From Alphaproteobacteria bacterium (GTDB lineage: Bacteria; Pseudomonadota; Alphaproteobacteria; CAAHEQ01; UBA3637): DNA of 42,071 nt. Below are positions 1 through 7,714 of this stretch, one piece after another. The position numbers were made by a program, and so were the translations under genes. Each line of letters begins with the position of its first letter. Position 1 is the first letter of the stretch. The notes beneath the pieces were generated by a model. The model saw nothing but the letters and a program-made list of their open reading frames with translations. It was not told where the DNA came from and made no database searches. The stretch covers positions 1 to 42,071 of the forward strand of contig JAGCVC010000014.1 of NCBI GenBank assembly GCA_017962565.1, in the 5' to 3' direction.

Positions 1-156
1 ATCTTTGAGATTTTTTCGTTTTTTTACAAATATATTTATCTGTTCTTTTAGTTATAAATCACTTGTAAAACAGGCATTTCAAACACTTCTAATATACATC
101 TTGCTTTGGAAGAAAACACAAGGGTTCATAATTCTTGGATTATGTATCATTGGTCT

Positions 157-810
157 ATGACTAACGAACAAATTGTATCCAAGCAAAGAGTATCAGAACA
201 CGGAGAGGTTTTTACGAACCCTCGTGAAGTCAATGCTATGCTTGATTTAGTCAAACAAGAAACAGAACGAATAGATAGCAGATTTTTAGAACCAGCGTGT
301 GGTAAAGGAGCATTCATCTCCGAAGTGCTCCATAGAAAATTACGGATTGTAAGTGATAGATATGCCAAAAGTCCTGTTGAATATGAGAGATATGCTGTTT
401 TAGCAATTTCCAGTATCTACGGAATTGACATCTTGGAAGATAATGTTGCTGATTGCCGACAAGAAATGCTGAAAATCTTTAAGGATGAATATAAATCAGC
501 TCTAAAACAAGATTGTTCCCCAGAATGTGAAGCAAGTGTTCGTTTTATTTTGAGTAAAAACATTATTTGGGGTGATGCTTTAACATTAAAACGAGTTGAT
601 AACGATTTACCGATTGTTTTTTCGGAATGGTCTGCTGTCAATGGCAAAATGATGAAAAGACGGGACTTTTCTTTCAGCAATATACTGAATTGTTCCACAG
701 AAGGTTTGCCATTACTTTCCGATTTGAATGAAGATGTTTGGTTGCCTAAACCCATCAAAGATTTTCCTTTAACACATTATTTGGAGTTAGAAAATGCTGA
801 AAAACTATAA
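157..810 (+). CDS. Small class I SAM-dependent adenine DNA methyltransferase subunit of a restriction-modification operon
   Basis: The protein carries an N6-adenine methyltransferase motif I, FLEPACGKGAF (about residues 43-53), preceded by EHGEVFTNP, a sequence typical of restriction-system methylases near their N-terminus. No NPPY/DPPY catalytic motif is present, and the 217-aa length matches small stand-alone proteins I associate with this family, so it is probably not truncated. The next gene carries NPPY and overlaps this one by 17 bp, so the two may act as a heteromeric methylase or modify different strands; that is inference. An in-frame TTG at 106 and ATG at 142 are alternative starts. 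157 is preferred because the protein then begins MTNEQIVSKQRV, like relatives, but no clear Shine-Dalgarno sequence decides it. Confidence 0.75.
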   Translation: MTNEQIVSKQRVSEHGEVFTNPREVNAMLDLVKQETERIDSRFLEPACGKGAFISEVLHRKLRIVSDRYAKSPVEYERYAVLAISSIYGIDILEDNVADCRQEMLKIFKDEYKSALKQDCSPECEASVRFILSKNIIWGDALTLKRVDNDLPIVFSEWSAVNGKMMKRRDFSFSNILNCSTEGLPLLSDLNEDVWLPKPIKDFPLTHYLELENAEKL

Positions 811-2305
811 CCCCGATGTTTTAAGTTGTTTGGCAAACCTGTCAAATGATGAAGTTTTTACACCACCTACATTAGCAAATGCTATTTTAGATATGCTCCC
901 ACAAGAGTTATTTGAAAGCACAGAAACAACATTTTTAGACCCTTGTTGTAAAAGTGGAGTATTTTTACGAGAAATTGCCAAAAGGTTGATTAAAGGACTT
1001 GAAAAACAAATCCCAGACCTACAAGAACGATTAAATCATATCTATACCAAGCAGTTATTTGGAATTGCCATTACAGAATTGACAGCTTTACTATCAAGAC
1101 GGTCAATATATTGTTCTAAACACGCTAATGGTAAGTATTCTATTTGTAGTGCTTTTAAGGATGAAGATGGAAATATTCAATATAAGAGAACAGAACATAC
1201 TTGGGAATACGGAAGATGTATCTATTGTGGAGCAAGTCAAAGCGAATATGACCGAGATAAAACACTTGAAACCCACGCTTATCAGTTTATTCATAATCCA
1301 AAGGAGTTAAAGAAAATGAAGTTTGATGTTATTGTTGGAAATCCACCATACCAGTTGAGTTTATCAACTGATAATCAAAAAGAGGGGAGTTTGGCAAAAT
1401 CCGCAGCATTACCAATATATCAAAAATTTATAGAACAAGCACAAAAATTAAATCCCAGATATTTGACAATGATTATTCCTTCTCGCTGGTTTAGTGGAGG
1501 GCGTGGTTTGGATGAATTTAGAAAAAATATGTTAAATGATAATCGTATATCAGAAATCCACGATTTTTTTGATGCCAGCGAGTGCTTCCCAGGAATAGAT
1601 TTATCTGGAGGAGTATGTTATTTCTTATGGAGTAGAGATAGTAAAGGGAAATGTAAGTTTTGTTCTCATATTCATAATGATGTTATTATTTCAAATAGAT
1701 ACTTAAATGAATTTGGGGAGGATAAGTTTGTTCGGTTTAATCAAGCAATACCAATTTTGAATAAAATAAATTCTCTTAAAGAAGAGACATTAGATACATA
1801 TGTTAGCACACAAAATCCTTTTAGGTTAAACACTAATTTTAAGGATTTTTGTAAGCAAGATGTTAAAGATAGTGTCAAACTATATGCGTATCCAGAAAGT
1901 GGTTTTATAGAACGAAAAAAAATTACATTAAATCAATCACTCATTGACAAGTGGAAGGTCTTTACATCAAAAGCATATGGAGAACGAGGTGATTTTCCGT
2001 ATTTTGCTATTGCCAAACCATTTTTAGGAGAACCAAATTCAGCATCCACAGCAACTTATAGGATTTTAAGTATATTTGATAAAAAAGATGAAGCAATCAA
2101 TTTTATCACATATGTAAAAACCAAGTTTTTTAGATTTCTTGTTTTACTGCTTAAAAATACACAAGATGCTCCCAGAAGGGTTTATCAGTTTGTTCCATTA
2201 CAAGATTTTAATGAATCTTGGACTGATGAGAAGTTATACAAGAAATATGGTTTAACCCAAGAAGAAATTGACTTCATTGAATCAATGATACGACCAATGG
2301 AGTAA
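794..2305 (+). CDS. Eco57I-like adenine-specific DNA methyltransferase
   Basis: This 503-aa protein has a motif I-like FLDPCCKSGVF (residues 47-57) and the catalytic motif IV NPPY (183-186, in DVIVGNPPYQ), as in Eco57I-type N6-adenine methylases that protect host DNA from the partner nuclease. Between them lies a Cys/His-rich insert (C107, H110, C118, C142, C145) that could bind zinc; this is inferred from spacing only. The C-terminal half is probably the target-recognition region. The start overlaps the 3' end of the small methyltransferase gene and has GGAG about 8 bases upstream. The nuclease-helicase gene begins 5 bp after the stop, so the three genes are almost certainly co-transcribed. 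Confidence 0.85.
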   Translation: MLKNYNPDVLSCLANLSNDEVFTPPTLANAILDMLPQELFESTETTFLDPCCKSGVFLREIAKRLIKGLEKQIPDLQERLNHIYTKQLFGIAITELTALLSRRSIYCSKHANGKYSICSAFKDEDGNIQYKRTEHTWEYGRCIYCGASQSEYDRDKTLETHAYQFIHNPKELKKMKFDVIVGNPPYQLSLSTDNQKEGSLAKSAALPIYQKFIEQAQKLNPRYLTMIIPSRWFSGGRGLDEFRKNMLNDNRISEIHDFFDASECFPGIDLSGGVCYFLWSRDSKGKCKFCSHIHNDVIISNRYLNEFGEDKFVRFNQAIPILNKINSLKEETLDTYVSTQNPFRLNTNFKDFCKQDVKDSVKLYAYPESGFIERKKITLNQSLIDKWKVFTSKAYGERGDFPYFAIAKPFLGEPNSASTATYRILSIFDKKDEAINFITYVKTKFFRFLVLLLKNTQDAPRRVYQFVPLQDFNESWTDEKLYKKYGLTQEEIDFIESMIRPME

Positions 2306-2309
2306 GCAA

Positions 2310-4850
2310 ATGATAGATAACAATTTTTTTCCAGCAAGACCACAAGCAAACCCAACTATCTATGCTTATGCAGATAATAACCCACAATACAAAGGATTGT
2401 TAAAAGTTGGTTATACCATTAAAACCGCAAAAGAACGAGTTGCCGAACAATACCCAACTGCCAGACCAAATGAAGTTCCATACACAATTGTGCTGGATGA
2501 ACCCGCCTTAAAAGAAAATGGCACAAGTTTCACCGACCACGAAGTTCATAGATTATTGGAAAAAAATGGTTTTTACAGATTACCAGATGAAAATGGTAAG
2601 AAAACCGAATGGTTTAGATGTTCCGTTCAAGATGTAATGAATGCTATTCAGTCAATTCGTTTAGGAAAAGATTTGGAACTTGCCAGAACTGAAACTTTTT
2701 CAATGAGACCAGAACAAGAAGAAGCAGTCAATAAAACTGCAGAATACTTCACTCAATATCATGAAGAAAATCCAGATAAAATCCCACATTTCCTATGGAA
2801 TGCCAAGATGAGATTTGGAAAAACATTTGCTTCTTACCAATTAGCAAAGAAAATGGGGTGGAAACGGATTTTGGTTCTAACTTTCAAACCAGCAGTTCAA
2901 GATGCTTGGGAAACCGACCTAAATACTCATATTGACTTTGAAGGTTGGCAATTCATTTGTAATAGAGGTAAGAAAGCAGATGAATGTATTTTGGATGTAG
3001 AACACCTGAATAAGAGCAAACCGATTGTTTGTTTTGGTTCTTTCCAAGATTTTTTAGGAACAAACAAAGAAGGTGGTATCAAAACCAAAAATGAGTGGGT
3101 GCATACGACAAATTGGGATTGTGTGATATTAGATGAATACCATTTTGGTTCTTGGAGAGAGAGTGCCAAAGAATTGTTTGAAGCAGAAGGCAAAAAAGAA
3201 CAAGAATATGGTGAAGGTATTGGTATTGAAGATTTTGATGAAGAGATTATGCCAATTACAACCAAACACTATCTATACCTATCTGGAACACCATTTCGTG
3301 CTATCAACTCTGGTGAGTTTATTGAAGAACAAATCTATAACTGGACTTATGCTGACGAACAACGAGCAAAAGCAAATTGGAAAGGCAAAAATAACCCTTA
3401 TGCCAGTTTGCCAAGAATGGTGATGATGACCTATCAACTGCCAGATAGTATCAAAGAAGTTGCCAGTAAGGGTGAGTTCAATGAGTTTGACCTAAATGTG
3501 TTCTTTTCAGCAGATGGTGAAAAAGATAATGCCAAGTTCAAATATGAAACAGAAGTCCAAAAGTGGTTAGATTTGATACGAGGTGCTTTTGAAGAAACGA
3601 CCATAGATAACTTGAAAATGGGTGCTAAAAAACCACCTATGCCATTTGATGATAGCAGATTAAAAGATGTTTTAACACATACTTTCTGGTTTTTACCATC
3701 TGTTGCTTCGTGTTATGCTATGGCAAACCTGTTAAAAAGACGAACAAATAAATTCTACCACGATTATAAAGTGATTATTGCTGCTGGAACATCAGCAGGT
3801 ATTGGTGTAAATGCTTTACCACCTGTGTATCAAGCAATGGAGAACCCATTAGAAACCAAAACAATTACTCTATCTTGTGGTAAATTGACAACTGGTGTAT
3901 CTGTTAAACCTTGGTCTGGTATCTTTATGCTTCGTAATTCTTCATCACCAGAAACCTATTTCCAAGCAAGTTTTCGGGTTCAAACCCCTTGGGTTATTAG
4001 TAATCCAACAGGTAAAGACCCAAATGCAGTTCAGATTATGAAACCAGAATGCTATGTGCTTGATTTTGCACCAGATAGAGCATTAAAACAAATTGCTGAT
4101 TATAGTTGCCGATTGAATATTGACGAAAAATCAAACCCAGAAAAGAAGGTTGAAGAGTTTATCCAGTTCTTACCAGTTTTGGCATATGATGGCAGTTCTA
4201 TGAGACAAATAGATGCCGAAGGTATCCTAGATATAGCAATGAGTGGGACAACTGCTACATTACTTGCCAGAAGATGGGAGAGTGCTTTATTAGTCAATGT
4301 TGATAATGATACTTTACAGAGGTTGATGAATAATAAAGATGCTTTGGATGCTTTAATGAGTATTGAAGGATTTAGAAATCTGAATAAGGATATTGAAACC
4401 ATTATCAACAAATCCAATGCTGTAAAGGACTTAAAGAAGAAATCAGCAGATAAAGAACTAACCCAAAAAGAGAAGAAAGAACTAACAGAAGAAGAGAAAA
4501 AGTTTAAGTCAATGAGAAAGCAAATCCAAGAAAAACTTATCAAGTTTGCTACTCGTGTGCCAATCTTTATGTTCCTAACCGATTACAGAGAAAGAACTTT
4601 GCGAGATGTGATTACAAAATTAGAACCTCAATTATTCAAAAAAGTATGTGGATTAAAAATTAGTGATTTTGAATTATTAGTAAGTTTGGGTGTGTTTAAT
4701 GGTGCTTTGATGAATGATGCTGTTTATAAGTTCAAACGATATGAAGATAGTAGTTTAGAATATGCTGGTATCAACAAGCACGAGGGAGAAGATATAGGAT
4801 TGTATGATACGACAATTACTCGTGAAGAAGCAGAAATTGTTGGTATGTAG
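2310..4850 (+). CDS. Restriction subunit: GIY-YIG (T5orf172-like) nuclease fused to a DEAD-type helicase/translocase
   Basis: An N-terminal segment (residues 17-110) has IYAY, LKVGYT and a downstream DHEVHRLLEKNGFYR, matching the T5orf172 branch of the GIY-YIG nucleases. It is followed by a superfamily 2 helicase core: RPEQ (133-136), Walker A AKMRFGKT (165-172), DEYH box (275-278), SGTPF motif III (325-329), TTGVSV near 527-532 and QASFRVQ motif VI (552-558). A Lys/Glu-rich charged helix spans about 710-760. It is probably the endonuclease and DNA translocase of the restriction system modified by the two upstream methylases. GGAG sits about 9 bases before the ATG. The cleavage mode and recognition site cannot be read from sequence. 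Confidence 0.85.
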   Translation: MIDNNFFPARPQANPTIYAYADNNPQYKGLLKVGYTIKTAKERVAEQYPTARPNEVPYTIVLDEPALKENGTSFTDHEVHRLLEKNGFYRLPDENGKKTEWFRCSVQDVMNAIQSIRLGKDLELARTETFSMRPEQEEAVNKTAEYFTQYHEENPDKIPHFLWNAKMRFGKTFASYQLAKKMGWKRILVLTFKPAVQDAWETDLNTHIDFEGWQFICNRGKKADECILDVEHLNKSKPIVCFGSFQDFLGTNKEGGIKTKNEWVHTTNWDCVILDEYHFGSWRESAKELFEAEGKKEQEYGEGIGIEDFDEEIMPITTKHYLYLSGTPFRAINSGEFIEEQIYNWTYADEQRAKANWKGKNNPYASLPRMVMMTYQLPDSIKEVASKGEFNEFDLNVFFSADGEKDNAKFKYETEVQKWLDLIRGAFEETTIDNLKMGAKKPPMPFDDSRLKDVLTHTFWFLPSVASCYAMANLLKRRTNKFYHDYKVIIAAGTSAGIGVNALPPVYQAMENPLETKTITLSCGKLTTGVSVKPWSGIFMLRNSSSPETYFQASFRVQTPWVISNPTGKDPNAVQIMKPECYVLDFAPDRALKQIADYSCRLNIDEKSNPEKKVEEFIQFLPVLAYDGSSMRQIDAEGILDIAMSGTTATLLARRWESALLVNVDNDTLQRLMNNKDALDALMSIEGFRNLNKDIETIINKSNAVKDLKKKSADKELTQKEKKELTEEEKKFKSMRKQIQEKLIKFATRVPIFMFLTDYRERTLRDVITKLEPQLFKKVCGLKISDFELLVSLGVFNGALMNDAVYKFKRYEDSSLEYAGINKHEGEDIGLYDTTITREEAEIVGM

Positions 4851-4852
4851 AG

Positions 4853-5380
4853 ATGAAGAAAGTTCTACTATGTTTATTATTATTGTTTAGCACAACAGCA
4901 TTTGGAAAAATAGAAGTATATTTTTCTCCATCAACTGATTGTGAGGACAAATTAGTAGATTTAATCAACAATTCAACAGAGACAATAGATGTTGCTGTAT
5001 ATTCTATCAACAATGACAATATAGTAAATGCTTTGAAGAAAGCACAAGATAGAGGAGTTAGAATGAGAGTTCTAACAGATAGAACACAAGCATCAGGCAA
5101 ATCATCCAAAGTTAGAGAACTTTATGATAGTGGAGTAAATATTAAAGTTCATAGCAAACATAAGATAGAACATAACAAGTTTGCTATATTTGATGGCAAA
5201 ATGGCAAGCACGGGTTCATATAATTGGACTAATCCAGCATCTAATAAGAATAGTGAGAATTGTGTATTCTTTATAGAAGAGCAAGAAGTTATAGCGAAAT
5301 ATCAAGAACGATTTGATTATCTTTGGGAAATAAACACCAAAAATGCTTCTGATACTTGGTTTAACAAGTTTTCTAAATAA
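4853..5380 (+). CDS. Exported phospholipase D-family nuclease (single HKD motif)
   Basis: The protein of 175 aa begins with a Sec signal peptide (MKKVLLCLLLLFSTTAFG), so the mature enzyme should be periplasmic or secreted. It carries one HKD motif, HNKFAIFD, followed by GSYNWT and a conserved-type SEN, as in the plasmid nuclease Nuc family. Those enzymes dimerise to form one active site and cut nucleic acid without strong sequence preference; phosphodiesters other than DNA are possible. The ATG lies two bases after the restriction-subunit stop, indicating translational coupling. A signal-bearing nuclease as fourth gene of a restriction operon is unusual, because its product would not meet cytoplasmic DNA. 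Confidence 0.85.
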   Translation: MKKVLLCLLLLFSTTAFGKIEVYFSPSTDCEDKLVDLINNSTETIDVAVYSINNDNIVNALKKAQDRGVRMRVLTDRTQASGKSSKVRELYDSGVNIKVHSKHKIEHNKFAIFDGKMASTGSYNWTNPASNKNSENCVFFIEEQEVIAKYQERFDYLWEINTKNASDTWFNKFSK

Positions 5381-5390
5381 TAATAGAAGC

Positions 5391-5424
5391 AAATTATTAC
5401 ATTCATAAATAATTTTTAATTTTT
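5391..5424 (+). terminator. Possible A/T-only terminator after the nuclease gene
   Basis: AAATTATT (5391-5398) can pair with AATAATTT (5408-5415) and is followed by a long T-rich run. The stem has no G/C pairs, so it may be a weak terminator or chance in an AT-rich gap. It lies 10 bp after the phospholipase D-family gene and before the next ribosome binding site, which would make the restriction operon and the downstream trio separate units. Confidence 0.35.
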
Positions 5425-5486
5425 TTTAATAAATACATTTATGGATGATGCTTTATGTATCTTCTATATTAAATAAGGAGAATAAA

Positions 5487-5840
5487 ATGATGTGGGATTT
5501 TGACCCAGAATATGAGGATATGCCAGATGATTTAGCATTACTCATTTGTGAAACTACTTCAAAAGATAAATTAGAATACATAAAAAAAGTGAAAATGTTT
5601 GCTACTTGCTGCGGAATGTGTAGAGGTGAAGATGAGTTTTCTTTGGGGTGGTTAGATAAAAGTAGAAATTATTATTCAGAAATAACGGAAAAAAAAGAAA
5701 TGCCGACTGATAGATGTATTCGTCATTTGATTTGGAGATTACGAGAAGAATATGAAGATGATAGAGCAAGCAGTGATGTAATAAAGCGACTAATATATGA
5801 AGGTAAGAAACTTCTTGCCGATAAGAAATCTGCTAAATGA
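5487..5840 (+). CDS. Small hypothetical protein, paralogue A of a flanking pair
   Basis: The start at 5487 is chosen because AAGGAG lies 6 bases before it; an upstream in-frame ATG at 5445 has no such site. The 117-aa acidic protein is clearly related to the product of 6468-6839. Both contain the pattern L-x-Y-I-x-K-V-K, then G-x-C, then S-x-x-W-L-x-K-x(3)-YY, then MP-x(3)-C-I-x-H-L. The WL-x-K-x-x-x-YY block recalls short alphaproteobacterial proteins of the DUF6626 type; this is from memory and unverified. The predicted fold is small and helical, possibly nucleic-acid binding. It is first in a tight three-gene unit. Function unknown. Confidence 0.75.
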   Translation: MMWDFDPEYEDMPDDLALLICETTSKDKLEYIKKVKMFATCCGMCRGEDEFSLGWLDKSRNYYSEITEKKEMPTDRCIRHLIWRLREEYEDDRASSDVIKRLIYEGKKLLADKKSAK

Positions 5841-5850
5841 GGTATTTTTT

Positions 5851-6468
5851 ATGTTAAATGCTTTACCTATTAGTATTCCAAAAGATGTTATAAATGTTTT
5901 AGATAATTTGGATTTACTGAAAGAAAACCAGTTTTTAATAGATACTGATATTTTTTATCATAATGTTCCTGTAAGGGGAGCATTTATTGAAGATGACTTG
6001 AATAATCGTATAGATTTAAGTGTTGGTGATATATTGAATATACAAACACTGGTGAGAGAAAAAACATTAGATAGGCAAGTTCCAAACGATTTGTTTTTCT
6101 ATCAACTTCAATATAGTGGAATAAATCATATTGGTATTTTATTTGCAGTTGATAGAAACTTAAAAATATATGGAATCCCTGTGGATAGTATTTCTTTTAA
6201 GTTTAGTGATTTGTATAAACAATTGGGATTCAAGAACCTTTGTAATGGAAACGATGCTTTTTTTGGAGATTATATGACACCTTCGTTTGCTAATGTTTTA
6301 CAACTCGTATCATCATTAAACAAAAACATTCTGTTTAGCGAATATGTTTTCAAGCGATTAGGTAGAAGACCTCTATTTCCATATACAGAACAACCATTTC
6401 TATTTCCGACTGATACAGAAGGAAAATACATCATATCAACAATTAGAAATAAAATGAGGAAATTATAA
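5851..6468 (+). CDS. Hypothetical protein, 205 aa, between the two paralogues
   Basis: I do not recognise this protein. The start at 5851 is preferred over the in-frame ATG at 5797, because 5797 lies inside the upstream gene and GAGG sits about 9 bases before 5851. There is no signal peptide or transmembrane segment. The sequence looks like a mixed alpha/beta soluble protein with a central hydrophobic strand (HIGILFAV) and many aromatic residues, and ends in a basic tail (RNKMRKL). It begins 10 bp after paralogue A, and its stop shares one base with the start of paralogue B, so the three are translationally linked. Its AT-rich composition resembles the rest of the island. Confidence 0.65.
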   Translation: MLNALPISIPKDVINVLDNLDLLKENQFLIDTDIFYHNVPVRGAFIEDDLNNRIDLSVGDILNIQTLVREKTLDRQVPNDLFFYQLQYSGINHIGILFAVDRNLKIYGIPVDSISFKFSDLYKQLGFKNLCNGNDAFFGDYMTPSFANVLQLVSSLNKNILFSEYVFKRLGRRPLFPYTEQPFLFPTDTEGKYIISTIRNKMRKL

Positions 6469-6839
6469 TGGATATGAGTTTTTTATTTGATGATGAAGAA
6501 AAACAGATTGAAAATGATAATTCATTCTTAAATATGCCATCATCTAATGAATTGAGATACATAACAAAGGTAAAACAATATTTAATGATATTGGGTTTAT
6601 GTAAAAATAATTGTGATTATAGTATAAATTGGTTAGGAAAAGCGAAGCATTATTATGGAATGAGTGTTTGTGAGAACAGAATGCCAAGCATTTCTTGTCT
6701 TATTCATCTATTTGGTAAATTAGCAGATGAAAAAGAGAGATATGAAGAAATTGGAAAAAAGGGAATTGCTATAAAAATAGATAAATTACTTGATGAAGCA
6801 AGGCAACATTTATTCAAGAAAATAACAAAAAGATTGTAA
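6468..6839 (+). CDS. Small hypothetical protein, paralogue B of a flanking pair
   Basis: This 123-aa protein shares with the product of 5487-5840 the core L-R/E-YI-x-KVK, G-[LM]-C, S-x-x-WL-x-K-x(3)-YY, MP and C-[IL]-I/R-HL. The two genes probably arose by duplication and then diverged considerably. The ATG shares its A with the TAA of the preceding gene and has GAGGAAA upstream. No signal peptide or membrane segment is seen; the C-terminus is Lys-rich. A link to DUF6626-like proteins is possible but unverified. The gene ends 29 bp before the inverted repeat at 6869-6914. Confidence 0.7.
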   Translation: MDMSFLFDDEEKQIENDNSFLNMPSSNELRYITKVKQYLMILGLCKNNCDYSINWLGKAKHYYGMSVCENRMPSISCLIHLFGKLADEKERYEEIGKKGIAIKIDKLLDEARQHLFKKITKRL

Positions 6840-6868
6840 AAACAGAGTATAACCAGACCGAACACAAA

Positions 6869-6914
6869 AAAAGTGTAAAATCCAAGTTAAAATCCTTGGC
6901 AATTTTACACTTTT
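6869..6914. repeat. Strong imperfect hairpin upstream of the serine recombinase gene
   Basis: AAAAGTGTAAAAT (6869-6881) is the exact reverse complement of ATTTTACACTTTT (6902-6914). Inside it, CCAAG (6882-6886) pairs with CTTGG (6895-6899), leaving a 2-base bulge and an 8-base loop. The structure ends in TTTT on the + strand and may terminate the upstream trio. It could equally be a recombinase subsite, because related TGTAAA/TTTACA elements follow immediately. Confidence 0.6.
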
Positions 6915-6921
6915 ATGTTAT

Positions 6922-6953
6922 TGTAAAGTGATATTTAAGATTTACATTTTACA
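6922..6953. promoter_or_regulatory. TGTAAA-N13-TTTACA dyad, possible operator or resolution site
   Basis: TGTAAA (6922-6927) and TTTACA (6941-6946) form an inverted repeat 13 bases apart directly before the recombinase gene. ATTTTACA appears at 6902-6909, 6946-6953 and, beyond the gene, at 7574-7581; its reverse complement is at 6874-6881. Serine recombinases of this class usually bind dyads close to their own genes, so this may be a crossover or autoregulatory site. That assignment is inference. Confidence 0.4.
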
Positions 6954-6967
6954 GAAAGGCATAGAAA

Positions 6968-7513
6968 ATGGAGTTTGGTTATCAAAGAACAAGTAGCACA
7001 AGTCAAAATATTGAAAGGCAATTGGTAGATGTAAAATTGGATAGAGTGTTTGAAGAGCAACTATCAGGCAAAGATAGGAACAGACCCCAGTTGGAATTGT
7101 TGTTGTCAATTTTAAGAGAAGGAGATGTTGTCCATATCCATAGTATGGATAGATTAGCAAGAAACACCAGAGATTTACTCAATTTGGTTGAAGAAATTAC
7201 TGGTAAGGGATGTAAAGTCATATTCCACACAGAACATTTAACATTTGAACCTAATAAGAATGACCCATACCAGCAGTTGATGATGACTATGTTGGCAGCA
7301 GTTGCACAACTTGAAAGAAGTTTGATTTTACAGAGACAAAAAGAAGGTATTGCTATTGCTAAACAAAAAGGCAAATACAAAGGTGGAAAAAACAAATTAT
7401 CACCAGAACAAGTGCTGGAATTGAAAGAATTATCTAAAACAAAGAGTATTACTTCGTTGGCAAAAAAGTTTGGAATCACCAGACCAACTTGTTATGCCTA
7501 TTTGAAAAACTGA
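6968..7513 (+). CDS. Serine recombinase (resolvase/invertase type)
   Basis: The 181-aa length is standard for small serine resolvases and DNA invertases. The catalytic serine aligns to S9 in GYQRTSS. SMDRLARN matches the conserved arginine motif, and AQLERSLILQRQKEG matches the start of the long E helix. The C-terminus (from about residue 140) is a Hin-like helix-turn-helix, with SITSLAKKFGITRPTCYAYL as its recognition region. AGAAAGG lies about 9 bases before the ATG. The enzyme could resolve or invert DNA at the dyads just upstream. No large inverted segment is obvious in the window, so which reaction it performs is unknown. It marks the right end of the accessory island. Confidence 0.9.
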   Translation: MEFGYQRTSSTSQNIERQLVDVKLDRVFEEQLSGKDRNRPQLELLLSILREGDVVHIHSMDRLARNTRDLLNLVEEITGKGCKVIFHTEHLTFEPNKNDPYQQLMMTMLAAVAQLERSLILQRQKEGIAIAKQKGKYKGGKNKLSPEQVLELKELSKTKSITSLAKKFGITRPTCYAYLKN

Positions 7514-7598
7514 TGGTCGGATTAGAGAACAAAAATGTAGAATATATGTAGCAAGAGGAGTAATTAAAAAAATATTTTACATAAAAAAGTCAAAAAAT

Positions 7599-7634
7599 AA
7601 TCCTTATAACTCATTGAATTATAAGGATTTTTTT
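7599..7634. terminator. Bidirectional rho-independent terminator
   Basis: AATCCTTATAA (7599-7609) and TTATAAGGATT (7619-7629) form a perfect 11-bp stem with a 9-base loop. T5 follows on the + strand, and an A-run before the stem gives a T-run on the - strand. It can end both the recombinase transcript and the tRNA-fMet transcript. Confidence 0.85.
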
Positions 7635-7636
7635 AT

Positions 7637-7714
<78 letters not shown>

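What the first reader, a model, noticed from the sequence alone, without database searches (positions are those of the whole stretch)
5487..6839. Paralogue-hypothetical-paralogue trio in the island
Two diverged small paralogues sharing the SxxWLxKxxxYY and MPxxxC[IL]xHL motifs flank an unrelated 205-aa protein, with a 10-bp gap and a one-base overlap. Such sandwiches often mark protein complexes, toxin-antitoxin-like sets or anti-phage modules. None of the three has a function I can name.
Basis: partly seen in the sequence, partly recalled or inferred. Interest (0 to 1): 0.6.

Follow-up and report, generated by a model that had tools for sequence, protein, structure and literature searches.

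The report
Paralogue operon beside island recombinase
Two related small proteins of an uncharacterised family (DUF6626) and an unmatched protein between them form one operon in a gut bacterium's DNA island, and relatives across Alphaproteobacteria lie beside the enzymes that insert and excise such islands, so they probably help control island movement rather than act as a toxin or anti-phage module.

Summary
The trio is real: A 5487-5840 (117 aa), B 5851-6468 (205 aa), C 6468-6839 (123 aa), with a 10-bp gap and a 1-base overlap as stated. A and C are diverged paralogues (32% identity, E=1e-16) and belong to Pfam DUF6626; C passes the cut-off, A falls below it. B is an ORFan: no relative in four family libraries, phage and plasmid collections, or about 900 genomes. 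DUF6626 has no described function, but its company is clear. In 12 related genomes, 12 of 25 copies lie within 1 kb of a site-specific recombinase (0.4 expected, P about 2e-15). In a second order, all 8 copies examined do so within about 3 kb. In the window, C is 129 bp from a serine recombinase beside a tRNA gene. DUF6626 genes share a promoter/operator-like element (ATTCC-N7-AATC ... TAAATA), and degenerate versions head the A-B-C operon and a similar two-gene operon. The predicted fold and sequence weakly suggest a Cro/CI-like helix-turn-helix. Best reading: a self-regulating, DNA-binding accessory operon of a mobile island carrying restriction-modification genes. It may control recombinase expression or direction. 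Neither DNA binding nor the role of B is shown.

The parts
5395..5438 (+). degenerate copy of the DUF6626 promoter/operator-like element (TATTACATTCATAAATAAT ... AATAAATA) upstream of A
   Evidence: position-weight score 7.2 against 17-27 for the defining sites, followed by TAAATA, with a longer spacer; weak on its own
5487..5840 (+). gene A, DUF6626-like protein, 117 aa
   Evidence: PF20331 E=5.8e-05, 23.9 bits, below cut-off 27.3; paralogue of C
5851..6468 (+). gene B, ORFan protein, 205 aa
   Evidence: no match in Pfam, NCBIfam, PHROGs, PADLOC, phages, plasmids, genome and viral contigs, or about 900 genomes
6468..6839 (+). gene C, DUF6626 protein, 123 aa
   Evidence: PF20331 E=1.5e-08, 35.4 bits, above cut-off; AlphaFold2 all-helical model, pLDDT 81.6
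6825..6967 (+). intergenic region conserved with L046: inverted repeat AAAAGTGTAAAAT/ATTTTACACTTTT (6869-6881, 6902-6914) overlapping a promoter-like TTGGCA-17-TATTGT (6896-6924)
   Evidence: repeats, promoter-like match, alignment with L046; 77% identity over 670 bp including the recombinase
6968..7513 (+). serine site-specific recombinase, 181 aa
   Evidence: PF00239 E=8e-34; PHROG 125 DNA invertase E=2.5e-56
7637..7714 (-). tRNA-Met, its 3' end facing the recombinase; possible attachment site, not shown
   Evidence: ARAGORN, Rfam tRNA

Best explanation
A-B-C is one operon at the end of a mobile genomic island whose cargo is restriction-modification genes (106-4850). A and C are DUF6626 proteins, which I infer to be small DNA-binding proteins with a Cro/CI-like helix-turn-helix that serve the island's site-specific recombinase. 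They would bind a palindromic operator at their own promoter and, in this locus, the repeats in front of the serine recombinase, setting when the recombinase is made or which direction it works. Having two diverged copies in one operon suggests a heterodimer or two-site regulator. B is translated with C and may be a partner or simply inserted cargo. Shown: operon layout, family, and recombinase association in two orders. Statistically supported: a shared promoter element at DUF6626 genes. Inferred: DNA binding, autoregulation, control of recombination, any role for B.
For: DUF6626 assignment. In 12 genomes, 10 of 25 copies lie within 500 bp and 12 of 25 within 1 kb of a serine or tyrosine recombinase, P about 2e-14 to 2e-15. 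In a second order, 8 of 8 loci have one within about 3 kb, and three further distant loci likewise. L046 shows the same order, small ORF - DUF6626 - near-identical serine recombinase, with conserved intergenic DNA. ATTCC-N7-AATC...TAAATA lies about 55 bp upstream in 16 of 23 DUF6626 genes against 5 other places in 522 kb counted on both strands. TAAATA lies upstream of 28 of 33 operons against 39 of 282 control ORFs, P=8e-17. The AlphaFold2 model has helix pairs at 48-55 and 62-69, and the family aligns to HTH_3 in the canonical register.
Against: The helix-turn-helix assignment is weak: hhalign P 0.02-0.05 with probability about 2%; Foldseek E 1.4-10; VIA-align Z 4-5 for XRE proteins, below ferritin-like helical bundles at Z 7. 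About half the copies in the window's order have no recombinase within 2.5 kb, some because contigs end nearby. The promoter motif was defined after looking, the loci share ancestry, and the window's own copy is degenerate (score 7.2; one-mismatch matches in the window are at chance level). No attachment site was found; in the same-genus genome the gene next to the window's tRNA-Met has other neighbours.
Confidence: 0.5

Rival explanations
1. DUF6626 proteins are recombination directionality factors (excisionases): they bind attachment-site DNA and switch the neighbouring recombinase from integration to excision, with no main role in transcription.
For: Small proteins beside both serine and tyrosine recombinases. 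In L031, L034 and L048 the gene lies about 200-245 bp from a tRNA gene, and the DNA downstream is conserved between loci. Known factors are small helix-turn-helix proteins of integrative elements (abstracts of PMC11963761 and PMC5882170).
Against: One family serving two unrelated recombinase classes would be unusual for a directionality factor. Many copies stand alone without a recombinase. A is slightly acidic (22 K+R, 26 D+E). No attachment sites were mapped.
Confidence: 0.22
2. A-B-C is a toxin-antitoxin or anti-phage module, with the paralogues as antitoxin or regulatory subunits around a toxic or sensing protein B.
For: Tight operon beside restriction-modification genes; some DUF6626 genes elsewhere lie beside a 364-aa ORF resembling Fic proteins by eye or an ATPase-like gene pair; weak fold resemblance to HigA antitoxins.
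Against: No fixed partner in most loci; no PADLOC match for A, B or C; B occurs nowhere else, so no conserved pair exists. Absence from PADLOC is weak evidence.
Confidence: 0.12
3. Two DUF6626 copies arose by duplication or by insertion of one element into another; B is incidental cargo or a decaying gene and the sandwich has no joint function.
For: B is an ORFan and the trio was seen once. DUF6626 copies are multiplied within genomes (6 in G013, 4 in G004), including a convergent pair in L036. A sits on a long branch (2.98).
Against: The ORFs are intact, with coding-type codon bias and ribosome-binding sites, and are tightly spaced with translational overlap. L046 keeps a similar small-ORF + DUF6626 operon.
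Confidence: 0.16

Closest known systems
Pfam PF20331 (DUF6626)
   Same: C passes the family cut-off; A is its paralogue; the core S-x-x-[FW]-L-x-K...PS motif is shared
   Different: Two diverged copies around an ORFan in one operon; A scores below the cut-off; no function is described for the family
Recombination directionality factors of integrative elements, such as RdfS of the Mesorhizobium japonicum R7A element (PMC11963761)
   Same: Small helical protein encoded beside a site-specific recombinase in an alphaproteobacterial integrative element
   Different: No sequence link tested or found; DUF6626 goes with both serine and tyrosine recombinases and often stands alone; winged helix not indicated
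Cro/CI (XRE) HTH_3 regulators, including C proteins of restriction-modification systems (C.EcoT38I), SinR and HigA
   Same: Helix order and register of the S...L..YY...PS..L core; palindromic promoter element; neighbouring restriction-modification genes
   Different: Similarity is not significant by profile or fold search, and Pfam HTH models do not match

Membership tests
Pfam DUF6626 (PF20331) | score above the curated cut-off of 27.3 bits | tested here: met
   C 35.4 bits
Pfam DUF6626 (PF20331) | gene A above the cut-off on its own | tested here: not met
   A 23.9 bits, E=5.8e-05; linked to the family mainly through C (E=1e-16), so called DUF6626-like
Cro/CI (XRE) HTH regulators | significant profile match to HTH_3 or a related HTH family | tested here: inconclusive
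   hhalign P 0.02-0.05, correct register; no HTH family among Pfam hits of 25 members
Cro/CI (XRE) HTH regulators | XRE fold | tested here: inconclusive
   XRE proteins recur at Z 4-5 but below helical-bundle background; Foldseek E above 1
Recombination directionality factor | gene next to a site-specific recombinase | tested here: met
   C is 129 bp from a serine recombinase; family-wide enrichment
Recombination directionality factor | required for excision, binds attachment-site DNA | not testable with these tools
   needs experiment; attachment sites not mapped
Toxin-antitoxin module | conserved two-gene pairing of DUF6626 with a partner | tested here: not met
   neighbours differ between loci; most DUF6626 genes have no fixed partner
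Known anti-phage systems (PADLOC) | A, B or C match a defence model | tested here: not met
   0 families for all three

The most novel reading that the evidence does not exclude
DUF6626 is a previously unrecognised family of mobile-element regulators in Alphaproteobacteria that controls both serine- and tyrosine-recombinase islands through a shared palindromic operator. The window holds a derived version in which two diverged copies and a new partner protein (B) form a heteromeric switch.
Probability: 0.25. Interest if true: 0.6.

Novelty: new variant of a known kind. Interest (0 to 1): 0.36.

Why it matters
DUF6626 has no described function and the held library contains no paper naming it. 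Its company, integrases and resolvases in separate alphaproteobacterial orders, together with a shared promoter-proximal palindrome, gives a first testable function: control of how genomic islands that carry restriction-modification and other cargo are expressed and moved. If true, it would also provide a marker for finding such islands in gut and rumen bacteria known mainly from metagenome assemblies.

Tried and rejected
B: family libraries, PDB sequences, phages, plasmids, viral and genome contigs, and about 900 genomes gave nothing. The best remote hits (E 0.005, in DprA-like and other long ORFs) are chance. A weak similarity of B to the small ORF in L046 (E=0.003 for a single pair, 35 aa) is too weak to use. 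AlphaFold2 of B alone failed (pLDDT 33). Island boundary: the same-genus genome has a tRNA-Met with different flanks and other genes beside the homologue of the window's next gene, so no empty site or direct repeat was found. DUF6626 in viral contigs, phages and plasmids: no match to several members, although PHROG 33694 resembles it. TGTAAAA repeats before the recombinase could be recombinase sites rather than DUF6626 sites; not separable here.

Full report
Three intact ORFs on the + strand, A 5487-5840 (117 aa), B 5851-6468 (205 aa) and C 6468-6839 (123 aa), are separated by 10 bp and a one-base overlap. They have ribosome-binding sites and a coding-type codon-position GC pattern. The quoted motifs are present. 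A and C are 32% identical over 90 residues (E=1e-16) and group together in a tree with moderate support, A on a long branch. The trio lies in a GC-poor stretch (28-29% against 32-38% for the surrounding sequence).

A and C belong to, or descend from, Pfam DUF6626: C scores 35.4 bits against a cut-off of 27.3, A only 23.9. B has no relative in Pfam, NCBIfam, PHROGs or PADLOC, in phages or plasmids, in genome or viral contigs, or in about 900 genomes from relatives to phylum level. The few remote hits are at chance level.

The surroundings tell most. Left of the trio are restriction-modification genes (methyltransferase ORFs 106-810 and 794-2305; a helicase/nuclease 2310-4850 resembling type IIG restriction enzymes) and a PLD-family nuclease. 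To the right, 129 bp after C, is a 181-aa serine recombinase (6968-7513), then tRNA-Met at 7637-7714 with its 3' end facing the recombinase. The window is a whole contig whose left end is cut, so the island is incomplete. The genome is 1.34 Mb; named close relatives of its DUF6626 genes come from rumen and gut Alphaproteobacteria assemblies.

Relatives of DUF6626 show a consistent setting. Twelve of 43 genomes searched in the order carry it, 25 copies in all. Ten copies lie within 500 bp and 12 within 1 kb of a serine or tyrosine recombinase, against about 1-2% expected per copy (P about 2e-14 and 2e-15). Arrangements include tyrosine integrase followed by DUF6626 (L031, L034, L035, L039-L041), serine recombinase followed by DUF6626 (L033, L042), and, in L046, a small ORF overlapping DUF6626 followed by a recombinase nearly identical to the window's. 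In a second order, all 8 loci with DUF6626 have a recombinase within about 3 kb, several beside a gene I read as guaA; three other distant loci are alike. In L031, L034 and L048 a tRNA gene lies 200-245 bp beyond the DUF6626 gene, and the DNA downstream of the gene is conserved between some loci, as expected near the end of integrating elements.

A shared non-coding element was found. Upstream of the DUF6626 start, typically beginning near -55, lies ATT(C/A)C-N6/7-AATC followed by TAAATA near -31. It is present at 16 of 23 genes and at only 5 other places in 522 kb counted on both strands. One of those five is simply further upstream of the L031 copy, and three precede similar genes (ankyrin-repeat-like by eye) in related islands. 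Outside the element the upstream DNA is unconserved (31% mean identity; the fixed columns were selected by the pattern, so they do not count as evidence, but TAAATA was not). TAAATA itself occurs upstream of 28 of 33 DUF6626 operons against 39 of 282 control ORFs (P=8e-17). In L046 a copy precedes the first gene of the two-gene operon, and in the window a degenerate copy lies at 5395 before A. Caveats: the pattern was chosen after seeing the sequences, the loci are related by descent, and the window's copy would not be significant alone.

Between C and the serine recombinase, the window and L046 share conserved intergenic DNA with an inverted repeat AAAAGTGTAAAAT/ATTTTACACTTTT that overlaps a promoter-like TTGGCA-17-TATTGT. 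This could be a regulator's operator or the recombinase's own site; the data do not separate the two.

Structure. The AlphaFold2 model of C (25-sequence alignment, pLDDT 81.6) is all-helical, with short helices at 48-55 and 62-69 followed by a long helix from 75. This is the arrangement of a Cro/CI helix-turn-helix. XRE regulators (HigA, SinR, C.EcoT38I, Aca2) recur among fold matches, but at scores that helical bundles reach by chance. Profile comparison with HTH_3 gives the canonical register with P 0.02-0.05, and no HTH family appears among Pfam matches. DNA binding is therefore an inference, not a result.

Verdict. The trio is most likely a regulatory or accessory operon of a mobile island, not a toxin-antitoxin or anti-phage module. 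Layout, family and recombinase association are shown. The promoter element is statistically supported. DNA binding, autoregulation, control of recombination and the role of B are inferred. No paper in the held library names DUF6626.

Noticed in passing
106-4850: Restriction-modification cargo: two adjacent methyltransferase ORFs (106-810 lacks an NPPY motif; 794-2305 is Eco57I-like with NPPY) and a 846-aa T5orf172/ResIII protein that together resemble a split type IIG enzyme.
   Followed up: partly
4853-5380: PLD-family nuclease with an apparent signal peptide (NucT/DrmC-like) between the restriction genes and the trio.
   Followed up: no
L031:9278, L034:6661, L035:9261: Ankyrin-repeat-like genes in related islands carry the same ATTCC-N7-AATC...TAAATA element as DUF6626 genes, suggesting a small shared regulon.
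   Followed up: partly
L214, L215, L216: In another order DUF6626 elements sit beside a guaA-like gene, with a tyrosine integrase next to it; in L214 and L216 DUF6626 is divergent from a small protein with H-x-H motifs that could be a replication initiator. No Pfam match for those small proteins.
   Followed up: partly
L036:3856-5150: Two DUF6626 genes face each other tail to tail, 425 bp apart, each preceded by its own copy of the promoter element.
   Followed up: no
7594-7634: A 14-bp-stem terminator-like hairpin sits between the recombinase and tRNA-Met and could serve both.
   Followed up: no
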